Shown here: piece by piece, positions 2,643 through 37,371 of the stretch
Layout: every line of letters starts with the position of its first letter
Numbering within the stretch: position 1 is the first letter of the stretch
IMG/VR virus record: IMGVR_UViG_3300005347_000205
Location: 1-64,000 of that record
Direction: 5' to 3' (one strand)
Length of the DNA: 64,000 nucleotides
Source of the DNA: a virus
The notes under the pieces: model-generated
What the model was told of the DNA's origin: nothing
The model's input: only the letters and a program-made list of their open reading frames with translations
The model's database searches: none
Made by a program: the position numbers and the translations under genes

Positions 2643-3296
2643 TCACAGTCGATGAGCAAACGACTCGATCCGGTTCAAGCTCTCGACGGGTGCGGCGAGC
2701 TCGGTCGAGCCGCCGTGTAGTTTCCCGTGCTCACTGATGACCTCATCGGCAAGTTCGAAAATCTGGAAACTGAAGCCCTCCCGGACTACCCCAAGAACGA
2801 CAATATTCGTATGTTTGCTGGGTATAGAACCGTGGAAGAGGCCGTCGCTCACCGTGCCACTCACGATATGAAAGTCGTATTTTGCGCCGCGGATGATCGC
2901 ATGGAGATCAATAACTTCATCTGATTCCGGAAACGCCGGGTTGCCACCATCCATCTGGATCAGCCCTGCGACCACGTTAACGACGCCATCCGCGATCGCA
3001 TTCCGAACGCGACGTTCCTTCAGGTCCATTCCGGAATTATGTCCCATCAGAAGCCAAACGTCATCGACATCAAGAACCTTCGCGAGCTTCTCACCCCTCG
3101 CAGGAAGTGGTCGAGCTTCACCCTTCAGCCACTTCCGGATTGTCTCGTAGCTCACATCAACGCCCTGACTGTGGAGCTGCTTGCGCAACCATTGAAGCCT
3201 GCCGTAATTGAGCGCCGGGCAGTGGGGATGCACATCGCACGCATGTTCGAGCCGCGTTGCAAAAGCCGGATCGCGAACGATTGATGAAACGCCCAT
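2643..3296 (-). CDS. HTH transcriptional regulator, candidate phage repressor
   Basis: 217 residues from the ATG at 3296, preceded by GAGGGA at a good distance. The N-terminal part (residues about 25-85) has an XRE-like helix-turn-helix: a first helix around YGRLQWLRKQL, then SYETIRKWLKGE as turn plus recognition helix, then a third helix. The C-terminal 120 residues are not a recognisable LexA/S24 protease domain and no Ser-Lys dyad is evident, so self-cleavage is not expected. The gene is monocistronic and its promoter (TTGACA-17-CATATC) is overlapped by a copy of the dispersed palindrome, as expected for an autoregulated repressor. I infer it is the regulator of the palindrome network; a non-repressor HTH role is possible. 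Confidence 0.7.
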   Translation of the reverse strand: MGVSSIVRDPAFATRLEHACDVHPHCPALNYGRLQWLRKQLHSQGVDVSYETIRKWLKGEARPLPARGEKLAKVLDVDDVWLLMGHNSGMDLKERRVRNAIADGVVNVVAGLIQMDGGNPAFPESDEVIDLHAIIRGAKYDFHIVSGTVSDGLFHGSIPSKHTNIVVLGVVREGFSFQIFELADEVISEHGKLHGGSTELAAPVESLNRIESFAHRL

Positions 3297-9437: not shown

Positions 9438-10655
9438 TCATTCTTCATCCATCGTGATCTCGACCGGCTTTACTGCTAGGCGAGCATCTGTCTCCGGGAC
9501 CATTGAGTGTCCGTGCTGGCCGAACTTGATGTGTTCGGAGAGCTTCTCATAATCGTCGGATGAGATTTGCTTACGCGCTTGCGCGGGAGAAATCAACTTT
9601 TTGGTGAAACTTCTATCACCAAGAATCGGCACCAGCACCGCCTCGGCAGCAGCCTCATCTTCATATGTATCTCTACTGCCCTTCCGAGTGTCGACAACGC
9701 ATTTGCGACCGGGCGTCGGCCGGCCGGCGAGCGCGTCCCTGAGTTCCTCATTCGCGAGTTGATCCAACCAGTGTTCGAGCATGGAACGATGCTGCAGGAT
9801 GTAGCTGCGGCGCTCGGGCGTCATGGCGCCTGCCGGCACAATGGGATTGTCGATCATGATCTCAAGGTCCAGTTCGCTATAATCAGTGCCCAGCAAGGCG
9901 AGATTGAAGTCCTCGAACTCGCGGCATCCGCCTGCCGCGCGCTTACGTCGGCACCAGATGCAACCCTTCTCCGAGGCGACACGCGGCGGGTTCGGCTGCA
10001 GGGTCAGTTCGGCCCGCTCCCTGATCCAGTCTCCGAATGCCAGCAGATCGTCTAGCGTCGTGTGCCAGACGCCGCCGCCACCTGGGCACCGAGGCTGATC
10101 GATTTCGATGATGAACCGCACCGGATCGGTGCCGACAATCTGCTGGGCGATCGTCTGCCAGAAGCCGAGTAAGTAGAGCATCACTTGCTTGTTCTGGACC
10201 GGACTGATCGCTACTCCCCTGCCCCACTTCAGATCGGAAACGTAGACGATCCAGACGCCGTCGATTTTTACGATTACCGCGCGATCAAGCGTGCCGAACT
10301 GCCCAGGCAACACCCAGTGCGACACGTCGACCCGGTGTTCGCTGAAAAAGCGACCGCCCATGCCACGGACGCGGTCAATGCCAGGCTGCAGCAGCAGTGC
10401 ATCGTCGACCGTCCAGGTGAAGGTCCAATCGTGCAGGCGGGTGCGCTGTCCGACGAAATCGAGCGCGTCGAAGCCGTAGCGGAGGCAGTCGTCAGAGATC
10501 CCGTGCGCCACCGTTCCTTCGGCCGCAACTTCGGTCGGATCGTCCGGCAAACCTCGGTTGGCGTTGACATAGTCGAGACATGTCGACCAGCCTTCGGCGC
10601 CGGACGGGCCGTGTGAGGAGTGCGCCAGCTCGCTGTCGAGGCGATCGTCGATCAC
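9438..10655 (-). CDS. DUF2800 Cas4/RecB-like nuclease
   Basis: About 405 residues. The N-terminal ELAHSSHGPSGAEGW stretch and EGTVAHG, then GTLDRAVIV and YVSDLKWGRG, give the D...DxK core of PD-(D/E)XK nucleases; cysteines in CIWCRRKRAAGGC near residue 245 could bind an iron-sulfur cluster or zinc as in Cas4. The GTG at 10655 is four bases past the preceding stop and fits the family N-terminus; an ATG at 10721 would overlap that gene by 62 bases. Likely a recombination exonuclease partnered with DUF2815. Confidence 0.8.
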   Translation of the reverse strand: MIDDRLDSELAHSSHGPSGAEGWSTCLDYVNANRGLPDDPTEVAAEGTVAHGISDDCLRYGFDALDFVGQRTRLHDWTFTWTVDDALLLQPGIDRVRGMGGRFFSEHRVDVSHWVLPGQFGTLDRAVIVKIDGVWIVYVSDLKWGRGVAISPVQNKQVMLYLLGFWQTIAQQIVGTDPVRFIIEIDQPRCPGGGGVWHTTLDDLLAFGDWIRERAELTLQPNPPRVASEKGCIWCRRKRAAGGCREFEDFNLALLGTDYSELDLEIMIDNPIVPAGAMTPERRSYILQHRSMLEHWLDQLANEELRDALAGRPTPGRKCVVDTRKGSRDTYEDEAAAEAVLVPILGDRSFTKKLISPAQARKQISSDDYEKLSEHIKFGQHGHSMVPETDARLAVKPVEITMDEE

Positions 10656-10659
10656 AGGA

Positions 10660-10995
10660 TCACAGGCTCCATCTGTAACCCCTTCCCCAGACCACCTCCA
10701 CTGGCCACGGAGCGCCAGCATCAGCGAGCGTCTTTCGGATTCTGCCGAAGATGACGGACATCGTGTTGCTTACGTTATTCGACTCGCTACCAACCCTATC
10801 AGCGAGCACGTCCCGCCTCACAGGGCGTCCGTAGGAGGCTGCCAGGGTGTACAACAACTGCACATGGTTCTTGGGCAGGGTGATCGCTTCGCCATGAAAC
10901 GACACTGCGCCGCGGGGATCGAGTATAAAACCATCGCGTTCGATCACCTGGTCTTGCTCAAGATTGAAGCCGCAATGAGGACAGTGAGCGGTCAT
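10660..10995 (-). CDS. Zinc-ribbon winged-helix DNA-binding protein (OmpR-type)
   Basis: 111 residues from the ATG that overlaps the previous stop as ATGA. Residues 5-9 hold CPHCG, a half zinc ribbon. The rest is an OmpR/PhoB-type winged helix: LPKNHVQLLYTLAASYGRPV, RDVLADRV, then NNVSNTMSVIFGRIRKTL as recognition helix and VWGRGYRW as wing. There is no receiver domain, so it is not a classical response regulator. It lies in the same coupled operon as the ECF sigma factor and should act on phage promoters. Confidence 0.75.
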   Translation of the reverse strand: MTAHCPHCGFNLEQDQVIERDGFILDPRGAVSFHGEAITLPKNHVQLLYTLAASYGRPVRRDVLADRVGSESNNVSNTMSVIFGRIRKTLADAGAPWPVEVVWGRGYRWSL

Positions 10996-11159
10996 GCGCA
11001 ATCATCCCGCTGTTCGGCCTGCATCACCGCGAAACGATGGCGCGCGTCGATCACCGTCCGTTCGAGTATGCCCATCGAAATCCGCAGCGTGCGCTCGTTT
11101 GCCGAGAGGTTGCGCATCTCGCTCACTCGGGAGAGCAAGGTTTCATGATCTATCGTCAT
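10992..11159 (-). CDS. Small helical protein encoded between sigma factor and winged-helix gene
   Basis: 55 residues from an ATG overlapping the sigma factor stop as ATGA. The sequence is polar and predicted helical (ETLLSRVSEMRNLSANERTL). No family recognised. Its place directly after an ECF sigma gene is where anti-sigma factors often lie, but it has no membrane segment and is very short, so this is only positional speculation. Confidence 0.6.
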   Translation of the reverse strand: MTIDHETLLSRVSEMRNLSANERTLRISMGILERTVIDARHRFAVMQAEQRDDCA

Positions 11160-11632
11160 GACAACAGCTCCTTGAGAGCGTCGCGCCCGCGGGCGACGCG
11201 ACTCTTGATGGTGCCGACGGCACATCCGAGATCCTGTGCGGCCTCTTCATACGAAGCTCCTGCACCGACCAAGATCAGCGCCTCGCGCATGTCCTGCGGC
11301 AGCATGGCGAGCGCCTTAAGCGTGTCGGCAAGGTCGACCACTGCGCCCTGTGGCGCAGGAACCCATGGAAGCGCGCTTATCGCCAGATCCTCAGTGCTGC
11401 CGCCATCCCAACGCTTGCGCCGCATCTGGGTGATGAAGCGGTTGCGCAGGATAGTTTGTGTCCAGGCAGGGAGGTTGGTGCCGACCTGAAATTTATCCCG
11501 ATGCTGCCATGCTTTCCCCAACGTCCACGCCGCCAAGTCTTCGGCCGCGTCAAAATCGCCGCTGACGAGGTGCATGGCATATCGGATCAGCGGCTTGCGT
11601 TGTCCCGCAAGCGCGGCAGCGAAATCGCTCAC
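11156..11632 (-). CDS. Phage-encoded ECF sigma factor
   Basis: 158 residues, with a GTG start overlapping the upstream stop as GTGA. Region 2 is at about 12-80 (LIRYAMHLVSGDFDAAEDLAA, WTQTILRNRFITQMRRKR) and region 4 at 105-155 (LPQDMREALILVGAGASYEEA, GCAVGTIKSRVARGRD). The spacing, and the phrases GTNLPAW and TILRN, resemble the alphaproteobacterial EcfG general-stress group. No anti-sigma gene of the usual kind is adjacent. A phage-borne ECF sigma could redirect host RNA polymerase to phage promoters or mimic the stress sigma. Family assignment is firm; the subgroup is a judgement by eye. Confidence 0.85.
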   Translation of the reverse strand: MSDFAAALAGQRKPLIRYAMHLVSGDFDAAEDLAAWTLGKAWQHRDKFQVGTNLPAWTQTILRNRFITQMRRKRWDGGSTEDLAISALPWVPAPQGAVVDLADTLKALAMLPQDMREALILVGAGASYEEAAQDLGCAVGTIKSRVARGRDALKELLS

Positions 11633-12426
11633 TCGACATGCTTCCGATAAGCGTCTCTGAAGACGTTAGTCAGGGCGATGTTCGAGCCTTGGCCAGTCCG
11701 CGCAATCCACTCGTTCATCTTCCGGACCCATTGCTGTTGGGTATTCATCGAAAGGCGGTCAACGAACGCTTCCAGCTTAAAATCAGGATCTCGACCGTCG
11801 GTCGCGAGAAAGACGAACAGGCTGCGGAGAATTTGCCCGGCATATCGCAGGATGTTGCCGTCGAATGCATCCGCCAAGGCACTCAGACCTTGATCTATCG
11901 TTAGTGGACCGTAGCGCCTATAGGCTGATGCGATGCCCGGAACGCAGTAAATCATCCTTGGCTGCCAAGCCGTGTAATTGGAGTGCGGTGCGAGAACCAA
12001 TCCTGATTTCTGGATCAGTGCCATGACTTCGGATGATTCGGCAGAACCTGCCGCTATAGATGCACGGAACACGTCAACTGAATTGAGTGATCTGCGTCTC
12101 TTGTTTAGCTTGACGAAGGTCTTCGCTTCGTCTTCAACGCTAGGTTGATCGAATATTACACAAGGTAGCCGGGGTATATCCGAGCGCATCTTCGCCGCTG
12201 TCAACCGGTGCTGCCCATCCATGACCGCGAGCGTGTCATCAGGCCGGCGGCCAACGGAAAGCGGCTGGCAGAGCCGCCAATCCCAGTCCTTCGCGATGTT
12301 GCGAATGAGTTCCTGGGATGAGCGGGCTTCGATTTTCCGCTGGTAGCTTTCGTCGACATACAGTTCGTCTAGCGCTACCCACTCCATTGCCGGCGGATCG
12401 CCTATGGCAGGATTGAAATCCGTCAC
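11629..12426 (-). CDS. ParB/sulfiredoxin-like nuclease-domain protein (DUF6551-like)
   Basis: 265 residues from a GTG at 12426 with GAGGG upstream; a longer frame runs back into the preceding gene. Residues 10-95 show the ParB N-terminal fold: ALDELYVDESYQRKI, then a central block ending with AVMDGQHRLTAAKM, the family's GxHR-type box. The C-terminal 150 residues are helical, unlike the HTH of plasmid ParB. Such proteins occur in phages with unknown roles (nuclease, CTPase or regulator). It opens the coupled sigma-winged-helix operon. Confidence 0.75.
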   Translation of the reverse strand: MTDFNPAIGDPPAMEWVALDELYVDESYQRKIEARSSQELIRNIAKDWDWRLCQPLSVGRRPDDTLAVMDGQHRLTAAKMRSDIPRLPCVIFDQPSVEDEAKTFVKLNKRRRSLNSVDVFRASIAAGSAESSEVMALIQKSGLVLAPHSNYTAWQPRMIYCVPGIASAYRRYGPLTIDQGLSALADAFDGNILRYAGQILRSLFVFLATDGRDPDFKLEAFVDRLSMNTQQQWVRKMNEWIARTGQGSNIALTNVFRDAYRKHVE

Positions 12427-12691: not shown

Positions 12692-13231
12692 TCAGCCCAG
12701 CGGATCATCCTCCTCGGCAGGGGCTGCGCCGGCCTGCGCCGGATCACCGTCAAGATCGTAATCGGCCGACAGATCGACCGTGCAGCCGGCCAATAGCCGC
12801 CTGAAGAAGAACTCGGCTTCCTTGCGCTGGTCATCATCGAGCGTCGCATCTGGGCCGACCAGTTTGGGCGTATTGTACCGCGCGAGCAGCGACGCCATGA
12901 ACTCAGCGCACTTTTTCTTCTGCGCGTCGGTTTCCGCGCGCTCGCGATATTGAAGTGCTACCTTCTTCACGTCGTCGTCGCTGACACTCCGCTCAACAAC
13001 AGCTGTGGCAGCGGCCTCCGCTGACCCCGTGCTGGCAGCTTCGGCGGCGTTTCCCGCGGGTTCCTCTTCCTTCGGCTTGCGCGTGCGCGTTGCCTTGGGC
13101 GTCTCGATCTTATCGATCGCGGCCTGCTGCCCCGCGATCAATCGCTCATGGTTGGCGGCAAGGACGGTAAGTTGTGCCGTGTTGGCGGCGAGCGCCTCGA
13201 TCAGCGCATCCAATTTGGCTTCGATGCTCAT
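12692..13231 (-). CDS. Phage protein with acidic DDPLG tail
   Basis: 179 residues, ATG with AGGGA upstream. The first 45 residues form an amphipathic coiled coil (SIEAKLDALIEALAANTAQL); residues 45-80 are a Lys/Glu and Ala-rich linker; residues 85-160 are a helical domain. The end is EEDDPLG, the same tip as DUF2815. First gene of the leftward operon behind the divergent control region, so likely expressed early. Role unknown; it could be an accessory of the ssDNA or replication complex. Confidence 0.7.
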   Translation of the reverse strand: MSIEAKLDALIEALAANTAQLTVLAANHERLIAGQQAAIDKIETPKATRTRKPKEEEPAGNAAEAASTGSAEAAATAVVERSVSDDDVKKVALQYRERAETDAQKKKCAEFMASLLARYNTPKLVGPDATLDDDQRKEAEFFFRRLLAGCTVDLSADYDLDGDPAQAGAAPAEEDDPLG

Positions 13232-13284: not shown

Positions 13285-13370
13285 TTAAAACACAGAGTTA
13301 TTCCAATTTCAACCTTATGGTGAAATATTCCCACACCGAGGTTGATTTTACCCGTGCTGGAAGGTAGAAC
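13285..13370. promoter_or_regulatory. Divergent control region with operator S4
   Basis: The palindrome TTCAACCTTATGGTGAAA (13308-13325) is identical to that at 2616-2633. Leftward: TTGAAA (13307-13312), 16 bases, TTTTAA (13285-13290), with the operator arm as -35. Rightward: TTGATT (13342-13347), 17 bases, TAGAAC (13365-13370). One operator can thus control both the sigma/replication operon and the VapE operon. The 170-base gap holds nothing else I can name. Confidence 0.6.
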
Positions 13371-16859: not shown

Positions 16860-17175
16860 GTGTGACAGCCCATAAAATTCGGCGATCCTGTCACAGGGCT
16901 GTCACAGCACCGTCAACCTCAATTTCTCCAGGTTTTCCGCGGTTTTGCGGAACCTTGTGACAGGTGTGACGGAAATACCGGTCTCCCTATAAGTTCTCCT
17001 CGTGCAGACCCCTCCATGGGTAGCCGTCAGGCCCCTTGAATCGTCGGTTTTGGGGCTCTTGCTCAACGACAACTTATAGAAATGCTGTCACTCCTGTCAC
17101 AGTTGTCACATCATTTATAAAATCAATGACTTAGCAGGTGTGACAGCCCTGTGACAGCTTTTACCCTGTCACAAA
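16860..17175. other. Putative replication origin with TGTCAC iterons
   Basis: Ten copies of TGTCAC or its complement GTGACA, plus one GTGACG, lie within 311 bases (16862, 16889, 16900, 16957, 16966, 17086, 17095, 17104, 17140, 17151, 17167), several as CTGTCACAG or TGTGACAG and at spacings of about nine to eleven bases. AT-rich stretches lie between (TTTATAAAATC near 17114). This is the longest noncoding stretch in the window (16779-17513) and follows the primase-helicase gene, so an iteron-type origin is likely. No clear DnaA box seen. Confidence 0.6.
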
Positions 17176-35805: not shown

Positions 35806-35858
35806 GTGAGTCCACTTTTCTGCCTATTCAACCGGAACCTATTCACGGGGAGAGTGTT

Positions 35859-36195: not shown

Positions 36196-37371
36196 TCACG
36201 AGATCATTGCGATGTCACATCGTGTTCGCTGGATTTCACCATAATCGCGGTGATAGGTGATTACATTCATGTCACGGCCAGAGCGATACCCTTGCCCAGC
36301 GTGCCAGGCATCTTTCGCAGCCAGAGTGCGAAAGGTCTCGACGATGACGCCGGGATGCTCTTTCGCCGACCAATGGTGGATGTGACCGCATAGCCAATAG
36401 CGGTGAACAGTTTCACCCCAATCAACCGCTCGATCCGTGGCCATGAGCAAAGGGAGCTCGCCAGATTTGCAAGCGTGCCCATGGTGGCTCCCGATCAGGA
36501 CTCGGCCAAAGCGCATATATTTGTAGAGCGACGGTGACATATCCACGATCACGCGAGGCTGGTCGTTAAACCACGCATTGAGCGCTATGGCGAGAAGCTG
36601 GGAGATGTGGGGATCATGGTTGCCAGGCATCATCCACGCGTGGACCCGATCGTGCTTTTCCAGTAGCCGCCGCACACAGTAGACGATCGCCCGAAGCCCG
36701 ACCTGGGCAATCTTACCAAAGCGACTGTCAACATCGAGTTTGTTGCCGTGACCTGGTGTTTCGTTGCGCGAGTCGTCGGCATGGAAGAAATCGCCAAGGT
36801 TGAGCAGCAACGCGGTCTTTGCGGCCGGCGCGGCCGATACGAGGCGATCAATAGCCGTACAGGTTATCCGCTCGGCTTCCTTGAGATCGAAATCATCACC
36901 GGTTTCGGCCGCCCAGCTATGCAGCCCGAAATGCGGATCTCCCATCGGGTACACCGCTAGGAGGTCTTCGTCAGTGGTCGCTGGGGGAGGCGTAAGCGGT
37001 GCCAGTCCTCGGACACCCTCTGTCGTCAGCCAGTCGACGAACTCGGCGATGATCTGCTGCTGCCAGTCATTGTCGCGTACCGACTTGACCCACTGCCCGC
37101 GGGCAACCCCGTCGCTATCGTAATAGGTGCTGACTCCCTTGACTGTGAAGCCGTCGGGGACGGTCTTCTTCATGTCATGTTCGGGACTGTGACCCTGCAG
37201 AGCAGCCTTCTTCCTGACGGCCGCGATGGATCGACCAACAGCACTCGGATGGACACCAAACCGCGCGGCCACGGCCTTGGCGCTACCTAGCTCAATGAGC
37301 GCATCGATATATTCAGCCTGACGTGGCGCCGCCCAGCGTTTGAGCTCGGCGTCGATTTTCAGTGCGACCAT
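36196..37371 (-). CDS. Metallophosphoesterase with N-terminal HTH
   Basis: 391 residues. An N-terminal HTH (EYIDALIELGSAKAVAARFG, PSAVGRSIAAV) precedes a calcineurin-like phosphoesterase: GDPHFGLH, LNLGDFFHADD, PGNHD and a final GHIHH, the full metal set. Similar proteins occur in siphophages near lysis or tail genes. Substrate unknown (nucleic acid ends or nucleotides). Last gene of the leftward late operon. Confidence 0.85.
   Translation of the reverse strand: MVALKIDAELKRWAAPRQAEYIDALIELGSAKAVAARFGVHPSAVGRSIAAVRKKAALQGHSPEHDMKKTVPDGFTVKGVSTYYDSDGVARGQWVKSVRDNDWQQQIIAEFVDWLTTEGVRGLAPLTPPPATTDEDLLAVYPMGDPHFGLHSWAAETGDDFDLKEAERITCTAIDRLVSAAPAAKTALLLNLGDFFHADDSRNETPGHGNKLDVDSRFGKIAQVGLRAIVYCVRRLLEKHDRVHAWMMPGNHDPHISQLLAIALNAWFNDQPRVIVDMSPSLYKYMRFGRVLIGSHHGHACKSGELPLLMATDRAVDWGETVHRYWLCGHIHHWSAKEHPGVIVETFRTLAAKDAWHAGQGYRSGRDMNVITYHRDYGEIQRTRCDIAMIS

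What the first reader, a model, noticed from the sequence alone, without database searches (positions are those of the whole stretch)
10655..12426. Phage control operon: ParB-fold protein, ECF sigma factor, 55-aa protein and zinc-ribbon winged-helix protein
Four regulatory-looking genes are joined by 4-base overlaps directly upstream of the recombination nuclease. The sigma factor has complete regions 2 and 4 and resembles the alphaproteobacterial EcfG group. The winged-helix protein has no receiver domain but carries a CPHC element. ECF sigma factors are rare in phages; this set may redirect host RNA polymerase. The short protein sits where an anti-sigma would.
Basis: partly seen in the sequence, partly recalled or inferred. 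Interest (0 to 1): 0.65.

Follow-up and report, generated by a model that had tools for sequence, protein, structure and literature searches.

The report
Phage-borne host stress sigma factor
A virus that probably infects soil bacteria related to Sphingomonas carries its own altered copy of the switch protein (EcfG) those bacteria use to turn on their general stress response, suggesting that it manipulates host stress physiology rather than its own genes.

Summary
The four genes are real, at the stated coordinates, with three 4-base overlaps, on a 72.5-kb Casjensviridae-like phage record. The sigma gene is of EcfG lineage (alphaproteobacterial general stress response): sister to 54 cellular, mostly sphingomonad, EcfGs on a long branch. 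It keeps the invariant promoter-reading residues of the -35 recognition helix but has lost the invariant core-RNAP pair Q-[E/D] (DLAAWT instead of DLVQ[E/D]T), so "complete region 2" is only partly right. The phage has essentially no EcfG promoters; host stress loci are rich in them under the same scan. No NepR is encoded. The 55-aa protein is not a dedicated anti-sigma: a relative phage has it without sigma or ParB. The winged-helix protein has one CxxC, not a full zinc ribbon. A syntenic sphingomonad prophage and 78 related viral contigs lack the sigma. Most likely it acts on host EcfG promoters, free of a phage-borne NepR; a decoy role remains open. In passing: 27 copies of a 19-bp palindrome, 25 intergenic, form a phage-wide operator set, the strongest in this operon's control region.

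The parts
11629..12426 (-). ParB/Srx-fold protein, DUF6551 / phrog_1033, 265 aa, DGQHR motif, all-helical C-terminal half
   Evidence: Pfam DUF6551 4.5e-14; phrog_1033 2e-18; AF2 pLDDT 95.5, Foldseek Noc/ParB/KorB E 3e-5 to 1e-4
11156..11632 (-). EcfG-lineage ECF sigma factor, 158 aa, region 2.2 core motif DLAAWT instead of DLVQ[ED]T
   Evidence: PDB 5uxx 3e-34; tree SH 0.965 with Sphingomonadales EcfG; motif counts
11525..11542 (-). codons for sigma residues 31-36 (E D L A A W): altered core-RNAP contact
   Evidence: Q35 is Q in 88/88 EcfG, 32/32 viral ECFs, 15/16 paralogues; residue 36 acidic in 88/88 EcfG
10992..11159 (-). 55-aa protein (SEMRNLS motif), older Casjensviridae early-operon gene, not NepR
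   Evidence: homologue L286 3547-3729 E 1.8e-6 in a phage contig without sigma or ParB at the locus; no NepR HMM match
10660..10995 (-). receiverless OmpR/PhoB-type winged helix with N-terminal CPHC (one CxxC only), 111 aa
   Evidence: Pfam Trans_reg_C 3.3e-12; PDB CpxR/PhoB family; CPCCG-bearing relative in Casjensviridae phage RHph_X2_30
9438..10655 (-). DUF2800 / Cas4-like recombination exonuclease downstream (family backbone)
   Evidence: Pfam 2.8e-40; 38% to Loktanella phage pCB2051-A
12431..12610 (-). 59-aa gene upstream (phrog_8618), older operon gene
12692..13231 (-). 179-aa first gene of the operon, conserved in the sphingomonad prophage
13307..13325 (.). strongest copy of the dispersed 19-bp palindrome, centred between the sigma operon and the divergent primase operon
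   Evidence: 28.0 bits, 75 bp from both start codons

Best explanation
The phage captured an EcfG sigma factor from a Sphingomonadales-like host and placed it, with a ParB-like gene, near the start of its early operon. Made early, the protein keeps EcfG promoter specificity, is not under the control of a phage-borne NepR, and has diverged at some positions shared by EcfG and PhyR that may face NepR. It therefore directs (or alters) transcription from host general stress response promoters rather than phage promoters, tuning host physiology during infection or lysogeny. Shown: EcfG ancestry, conserved DNA-reading residues, altered core motif, lack of EcfG promoters in the phage, absence of NepR, insertion relative to relatives. 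Inferred: early expression, that it binds core RNAP, that host promoters are its targets, and that NepR no longer binds it.
For: Tree places it next to 54 cellular EcfGs of Sphingomonadales with SH support 0.965. Closest cellular relatives are sphingomonads at 57-58%. A Sphingomonadaceae genome carries a syntenic prophage. Invariant EcfG residues are kept at 14/16 in 2.3-2.4 and 16/18 in the -35 HTH, with every invariant residue of the recognition helix (138-150) kept, despite only 49% identity to the EcfG consensus overall. No exact EcfG promoter in the phage and 2 loose ones against 7.3 for permuted motifs; positive control 232 against 64. The DAED-type acidic core contact is retained (D28-A-A-E-D32), the motif described as essential for holoenzyme formation in PMC8103513. 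Precedent: phage sporulation-like sigmas act on host regulons and are non-essential for lytic infection (PMC9429907).
Against: The invariant Q35 and [E/D]36 of the core-binding helix are A and W, which could cripple core binding. Invariant residues are also lost elsewhere (A18, F19, F59, Q115, F126, I134, C135), and residues shared with PhyR are not lost significantly more often than EcfG-only ones (Fisher P 0.33), so escape from NepR is a guess. Host is inferred, not shown. Promoter specificity could have shifted in spite of the conserved residues. The shortage of the loose motif in the phage is not a strong statistic.
Confidence: 0.42

Rival explanations
1. Decoy sigma: the protein no longer works with core RNAP. 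It acts either by occupying EcfG promoters (silencing the host stress response) or by titrating NepR as PhyR does (activating host EcfG).
For: The motif that is invariant across EcfG, viral ECFs and nearly all paralogues and yet broken here is the core-contact Q-[E/D]. PhyR, a sigma mimic that binds NepR and not RNAP, is degenerate at the same two positions (R/A and A). A 30-sequence sphingomonad sample taken without pattern bias is DLVQET in every case.
Against: The DAED acidic patch is retained. Free ECF sigmas bind promoters weakly (own knowledge). F126, invariant in both EcfG and PhyR and so a candidate NepR contact, is lost, against NepR titration.
Confidence: 0.25
2. Phage developmental sigma: it transcribes phage middle or late genes from promoters whose sequence is not the EcfG consensus, as T4 gp55-type sigmas do; ParB-like or winged-helix neighbours may assist.
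For: Its gene lies upstream of the replication genes on the same strand as the structural genes; the ECF-like sigma of T4-like rhizobial phage phiM9 lies among structural genes.
Against: Relatives with the same gene order run their late genes without a sigma at this locus. No shared EcfG-like promoter. Late operon gaps share the 19-bp palindrome instead. The invariant residues of the -35 recognition helix are unchanged from host EcfG.
Confidence: 0.2
3. Transient passenger: a recently acquired, slowly decaying moron gene with no lasting function.
For: Present only in this phage species among 80 exonuclease-bearing contigs; long branch (0.76 against at most 0.28); loss of some invariant residues.
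Against: Frame intact with 4-base coupling on both sides; invariant residues of the recognition helix all kept in spite of about half of all residues having changed.
Confidence: 0.13

Closest known systems
EcfG general stress response sigma, e.g. S. melonis EcfG, B. quintana RpoE (5uxx)
   Same: Sequence lineage, two-domain fold, invariant -35 recognition helix residues and most -10 region residues
   Different: Phage-borne, no NepR or PhyR partner, short, DLVQ[ED]T replaced by DLAAWT, F126 and F59 lost
Phage-encoded sporulation-like sigma factors of Bacillus phages (PMC9429907)
   Same: Host-type developmental or stress sigma carried by a phage, apparently aimed at the host regulon
   Different: SigF/SigG type in Bacillota; here a group IV EcfG in an alphaproteobacterial phage, with an altered core motif
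ECF-like sigmas of T4-like rhizobial phages (phiM9, P10VF, AF3)
   Same: ECF class in alphaproteobacterial phages, about 32% identical
   Different: phiM9's keeps DLVQ, lies among structural genes and may serve phage promoters; different phage family
PhyR sigma-like domain
   Same: EcfG mimic, degenerate at the same core-contact positions
   Different: The phage protein keeps the DNA-reading residues and has no receiver domain
Casjensviridae early operon (Loktanella pCB2051-A, RcLkye, RHph_X2_30, sphingomonad prophage)
   Same: Divergent primase, first gene, DUF2800 exonuclease, ssDNA annealing protein, polymerase
   Different: ParB-like, sigma and this winged helix are absent at the locus there

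Membership tests
EcfG / general stress response ECF sigma | Groups with cellular EcfG rather than other ECFs | tested here: met
   FastTree SH 0.965 with 54 Sphingomonadales EcfGs; ECF paralogues as comparison
EcfG / general stress response ECF sigma | Invariant promoter-recognition residues (region 4.2 helix, 2.3-2.4) | tested here: met
   A138 G140 T141 I142 K143 S144 R145 V146 R148 R150 and W57 I61 L62 R63 N64 Q69 M70 R71 all kept; F59 and S68 differ
EcfG / general stress response ECF sigma | Intact core-RNAP motif DLVQ[ED]T | tested here: not met
   DLAAWT; Q invariant in 88 EcfGs plus 30 sampled without pattern bias
EcfG / general stress response ECF sigma | Linked nepR and phyR | tested here: not met
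   NepR HMM finds nothing convincing in the whole record (best E 0.07 in an unrelated frame); no PhyR neighbour; some cellular EcfG paralogues also lack linkage (PMC3892343, PMC8103513)
EcfG / general stress response ECF sigma | Drives GGAAC-N-GTT promoters | not testable with these tools
   needs in vitro transcription
NepR anti-sigma (55-aa protein) | NepR motif and pairing with sigma | tested here: not met
   no match even at E 1000; homologue occurs without sigma
ParB/Srx-fold DUF6551 proteins | DGQHR-containing ParB-like fold | tested here: met
ParB plasmid or chromosome partition protein | ParA partner and parS sites | not tested
   No dedicated search for ParA or parS was made; no ParA was noticed among neighbours
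Zinc-ribbon protein | Two CxxC knuckles (four ligands) | tested here: not met
   only C5 and C8 in the 111-aa protein (sequence)
Casjensviridae | Homologous terminase, portal, polymerase, primase and exonuclease in family order | tested here: met
   TerL 2e-201, portal 2e-171, polymerase 2e-182 to named members

The most novel reading that the evidence does not exclude
A phage has turned the host's general stress sigma into a new tool: a NepR-free EcfG with a rewritten core-RNAP contact that reads host stress promoters but is uncoupled from normal holoenzyme control, either a rewired activator or a promoter-occupying decoy that blocks the host stress response.
Probability: 0.3. Interest if true: 0.75.

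Novelty: new variant of a known kind. Interest (0 to 1): 0.52.

Why it matters
Phage-borne sporulation sigmas show that phages can steer dormancy in spore-formers; this would be the alphaproteobacterial counterpart, aimed at the general stress response that governs survival of soil and plant bacteria. The broken core motif next to an intact promoter-reading surface makes a sharp, testable case of how a sigma factor can be repurposed. I found no paper in the open library on a phage-encoded EcfG.

Tried and rejected
(1) EcfG promoters in the phage: strict and loose motifs, permuted-motif controls and a host positive control; essentially none. The only intergenic loose hit (35834-35858) ends directly before a start codon. 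(2) 55-aa as NepR: HMM from 83 NepRs gives no match; L286 shows it without sigma. (3) ParB plus sigma as a recurrent module: two diverged contigs, L026 and L050, have sigma directly followed by a ParB-like gene, but none of 79 ParB-seeded contigs has an ECF sigma within 4 kb; suggestive, not general, and the order is reversed. (4) NepR-escape statistic: not significant, P 0.33. (5) Defence or counter-defence: no PADLOC match. (6) Sigma-70 promoter and terminator scan of the region: no more than chance. (7) Close-relative scans with sigma, ParB and exonuclease found only the two identical contigs. (8) Palindrome copy inside the exonuclease gene: set aside as a likely coding coincidence, since the same place encodes a conserved FTKKL stretch.

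Full report
WHAT THE WINDOW IS. The window is bases 1-64000 of a 72,509-base virus record. Terminase, portal, capsid, tail, DNA polymerase, primase and exonuclease match Casjensviridae phages RcLkye, RHph_X2_30 and Loktanella pCB2051-A in family order. One end of the record cuts an integrase gene (71295-72509), so the phage is probably temperate and the record nearly complete. A Sphingomonadaceae genome carries a syntenic prophage, and the sigma's nearest cellular relatives are sphingomonads, so a sphingomonad host is likely but not shown.

OBSERVATION. The four genes lie where stated, with three 4-base overlaps. Two further IMG/VR contigs are 100% identical over the locus, so a chimera is unlikely. 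The gene order on the minus strand is 179-aa, 59-aa, ParB-like, sigma, 55-aa, winged helix, DUF2800 exonuclease, ssDNA annealing protein, DUF2786 gene, GIY-YIG gene, polymerase.

HOW THE CASSETTE AROSE. In the sphingomonad prophage the interval is 179-aa homologue, a 69-aa protein, exonuclease; in X2_30 it is one gene then exonuclease; in contigs L287 and L292 the 179-aa homologue ends close to the exonuclease. Contig L286 has 179-aa, 59-aa, a 60-aa homologue of the 55-aa protein (22 of 39 residues identical, E 1.8e-6), a small Cys-rich frame, exonuclease, and no sigma or ParB. None of 78 other exonuclease-bearing contigs has an ECF sigma within 4 kb. The simplest history is that ParB plus sigma were inserted between two older small genes and the winged helix was added separately. 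This removes the positional argument for the 55-aa protein as anti-sigma. It also has no NepR match.

THE SIGMA. Best PDB match is B. quintana RpoE (EcfG) from the RpoE-NepR crystal, E 3e-34, also by predicted structure (pLDDT 82; Foldseek top hit). In a FastTree with cellular EcfGs, other viral ECFs and ECF paralogues it is sister to 54 EcfGs, none of them from the Rhizobiales loci (SH 0.965), on a branch of 0.76 against at most 0.28 for cellular EcfGs. Aligned to 88 EcfGs, 32 viral or phage ECFs and 16 paralogues, it keeps all invariant residues of the -35 recognition helix and nearly all in 2.3-2.4, but the region 2.2 motif DLVQ[ED]T reads DLAAWT. Q is present in 88/88, 32/32 and 15/16 of those sets. 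The first two sets were gathered with patterns that favour this motif in part, so 30 sphingomonad EcfGs were fetched without motif selection: all read DLVQET. By my knowledge of sigma-70 these two residues correspond to Q406 and E407, which face the beta-prime clamp helices. The acidic DAED-type patch just before them, described as essential for holoenzyme formation (PMC8103513), is kept as D28-A-A-E-D32. Core binding is therefore altered, not proven lost. PhyR, the natural EcfG mimic, is degenerate at the same two positions but has also lost the DNA-reading residues, which the phage protein keeps. F126, invariant in both EcfG and PhyR, is lost and may be a NepR contact; the overall contrast between residue classes is not significant (P 0.33).

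TARGETS. S. melonis EcfG reads GGAAC-N17-20-GTT (PMC6599016). The phage has 2 such sites, one intergenic, against 7.3 for permuted motifs; no exact GGAAC-N16/17-CGTT exists. The same scan on 80 cellular EcfG loci gives 232 against 64, so the test works. If the conserved recognition helix means conserved specificity, the targets are host genes.

NEIGHBOURS. The ParB-like protein has a confident ParB/Srx-fold model (pLDDT 95.5) and DUF6551 membership; its relatives occur in early regions of many phages. Two diverged viral contigs place an ECF sigma directly before a ParB-like gene, but 79 ParB-seeded contigs do not. The winged helix is an OmpR/PhoB-type DNA-binding domain without receiver and with a single CxxC.

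CONTROL OF THE OPERON. A 19-bp palindrome, TTTCA(A/C)(C/T)-N5-(A/G)(G/T)TGAAA, occurs 27 times; 25 copies are intergenic although intergenic DNA is 10% of the record, against about 0.4 expected in shuffled sequence. The strongest copy sits 75 bp from both divergent start codons at 13307-13325, so the sigma operon is one member of a phage-wide regulon. Similar sites are dispersed in RHph_X2_30 (32 hits) with a few in V16 and Phobos. The HTH_3 protein at 2643-3188, flanked by sites at 2615 and 3358, is the best candidate regulator. This is inference.

VERDICT. An EcfG-lineage sigma carried by a Casjensviridae-like phage, probably aimed at the host stress regulon, with an unusual core-contact change that leaves a decoy role open. 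New variant of a known kind (phage-encoded host-type sigma factors).

Noticed in passing
record positions 110-71293, e.g. window 2615, 3358, 13307, 17444, 21369, 24158, 25712, 25761, 32329, 34336, 39999, 43534, 48950, 55709, 57588, 62574: 27 copies of a 19-bp palindrome TTTCAMY-N5-RKTGAAA, 25 intergenic, many 2-75 bases before start codons inside operons: dispersed operators of one phage regulator, reminiscent of mycobacteriophage stoperators; also dispersed in RHph_X2_30.
   Followed up: partly
window 16861-17173: All 8 copies of CTGTCACA in the window (1.2 expected) lie within 313 bases just downstream of the primase gene: likely replication-origin iterons.
   Followed up: partly
L026 6001-7352 and L050 5947-7199: Diverged viral contigs with an ECF sigma directly followed by a ParB-like gene, as in the window but in reverse order; L026 also has a sliding-clamp-like gene and a DnaA-C-terminus-like frame nearby (read by eye).
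   Followed up: partly
L024, L025, L027, L047: Viral contigs with a NepR homologue just upstream of an EcfG-like sigma; in L024, L025 and L027 the sigma is near the contig end, so host flank cannot be excluded.
   Followed up: no
window 62703-63842: Acyltransferase-3 membrane protein (E 5e-20) between the portal-side and terminase-side genes: a possible lysogenic surface-modification gene.
   Followed up: no
window 2643-3188: HTH_3 regulator conserved beside the integrase region in Casjensviridae, flanked by two palindromes: candidate repressor for the dispersed operators.
   Followed up: partly
window 36196-37371: 391-aa gene at the end of the late strand with a weak LysR-type HTH hit; its homologue in RcLkye is annotated metallophosphoesterase.
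   Followed up: no
G113:C1 1344001-1404000 (L280-L282): Sphingomonadaceae prophage syntenic with the window; its exonuclease match was reported with one internal TGA, and it lacks the palindrome (one weak hit).
   Followed up: partly
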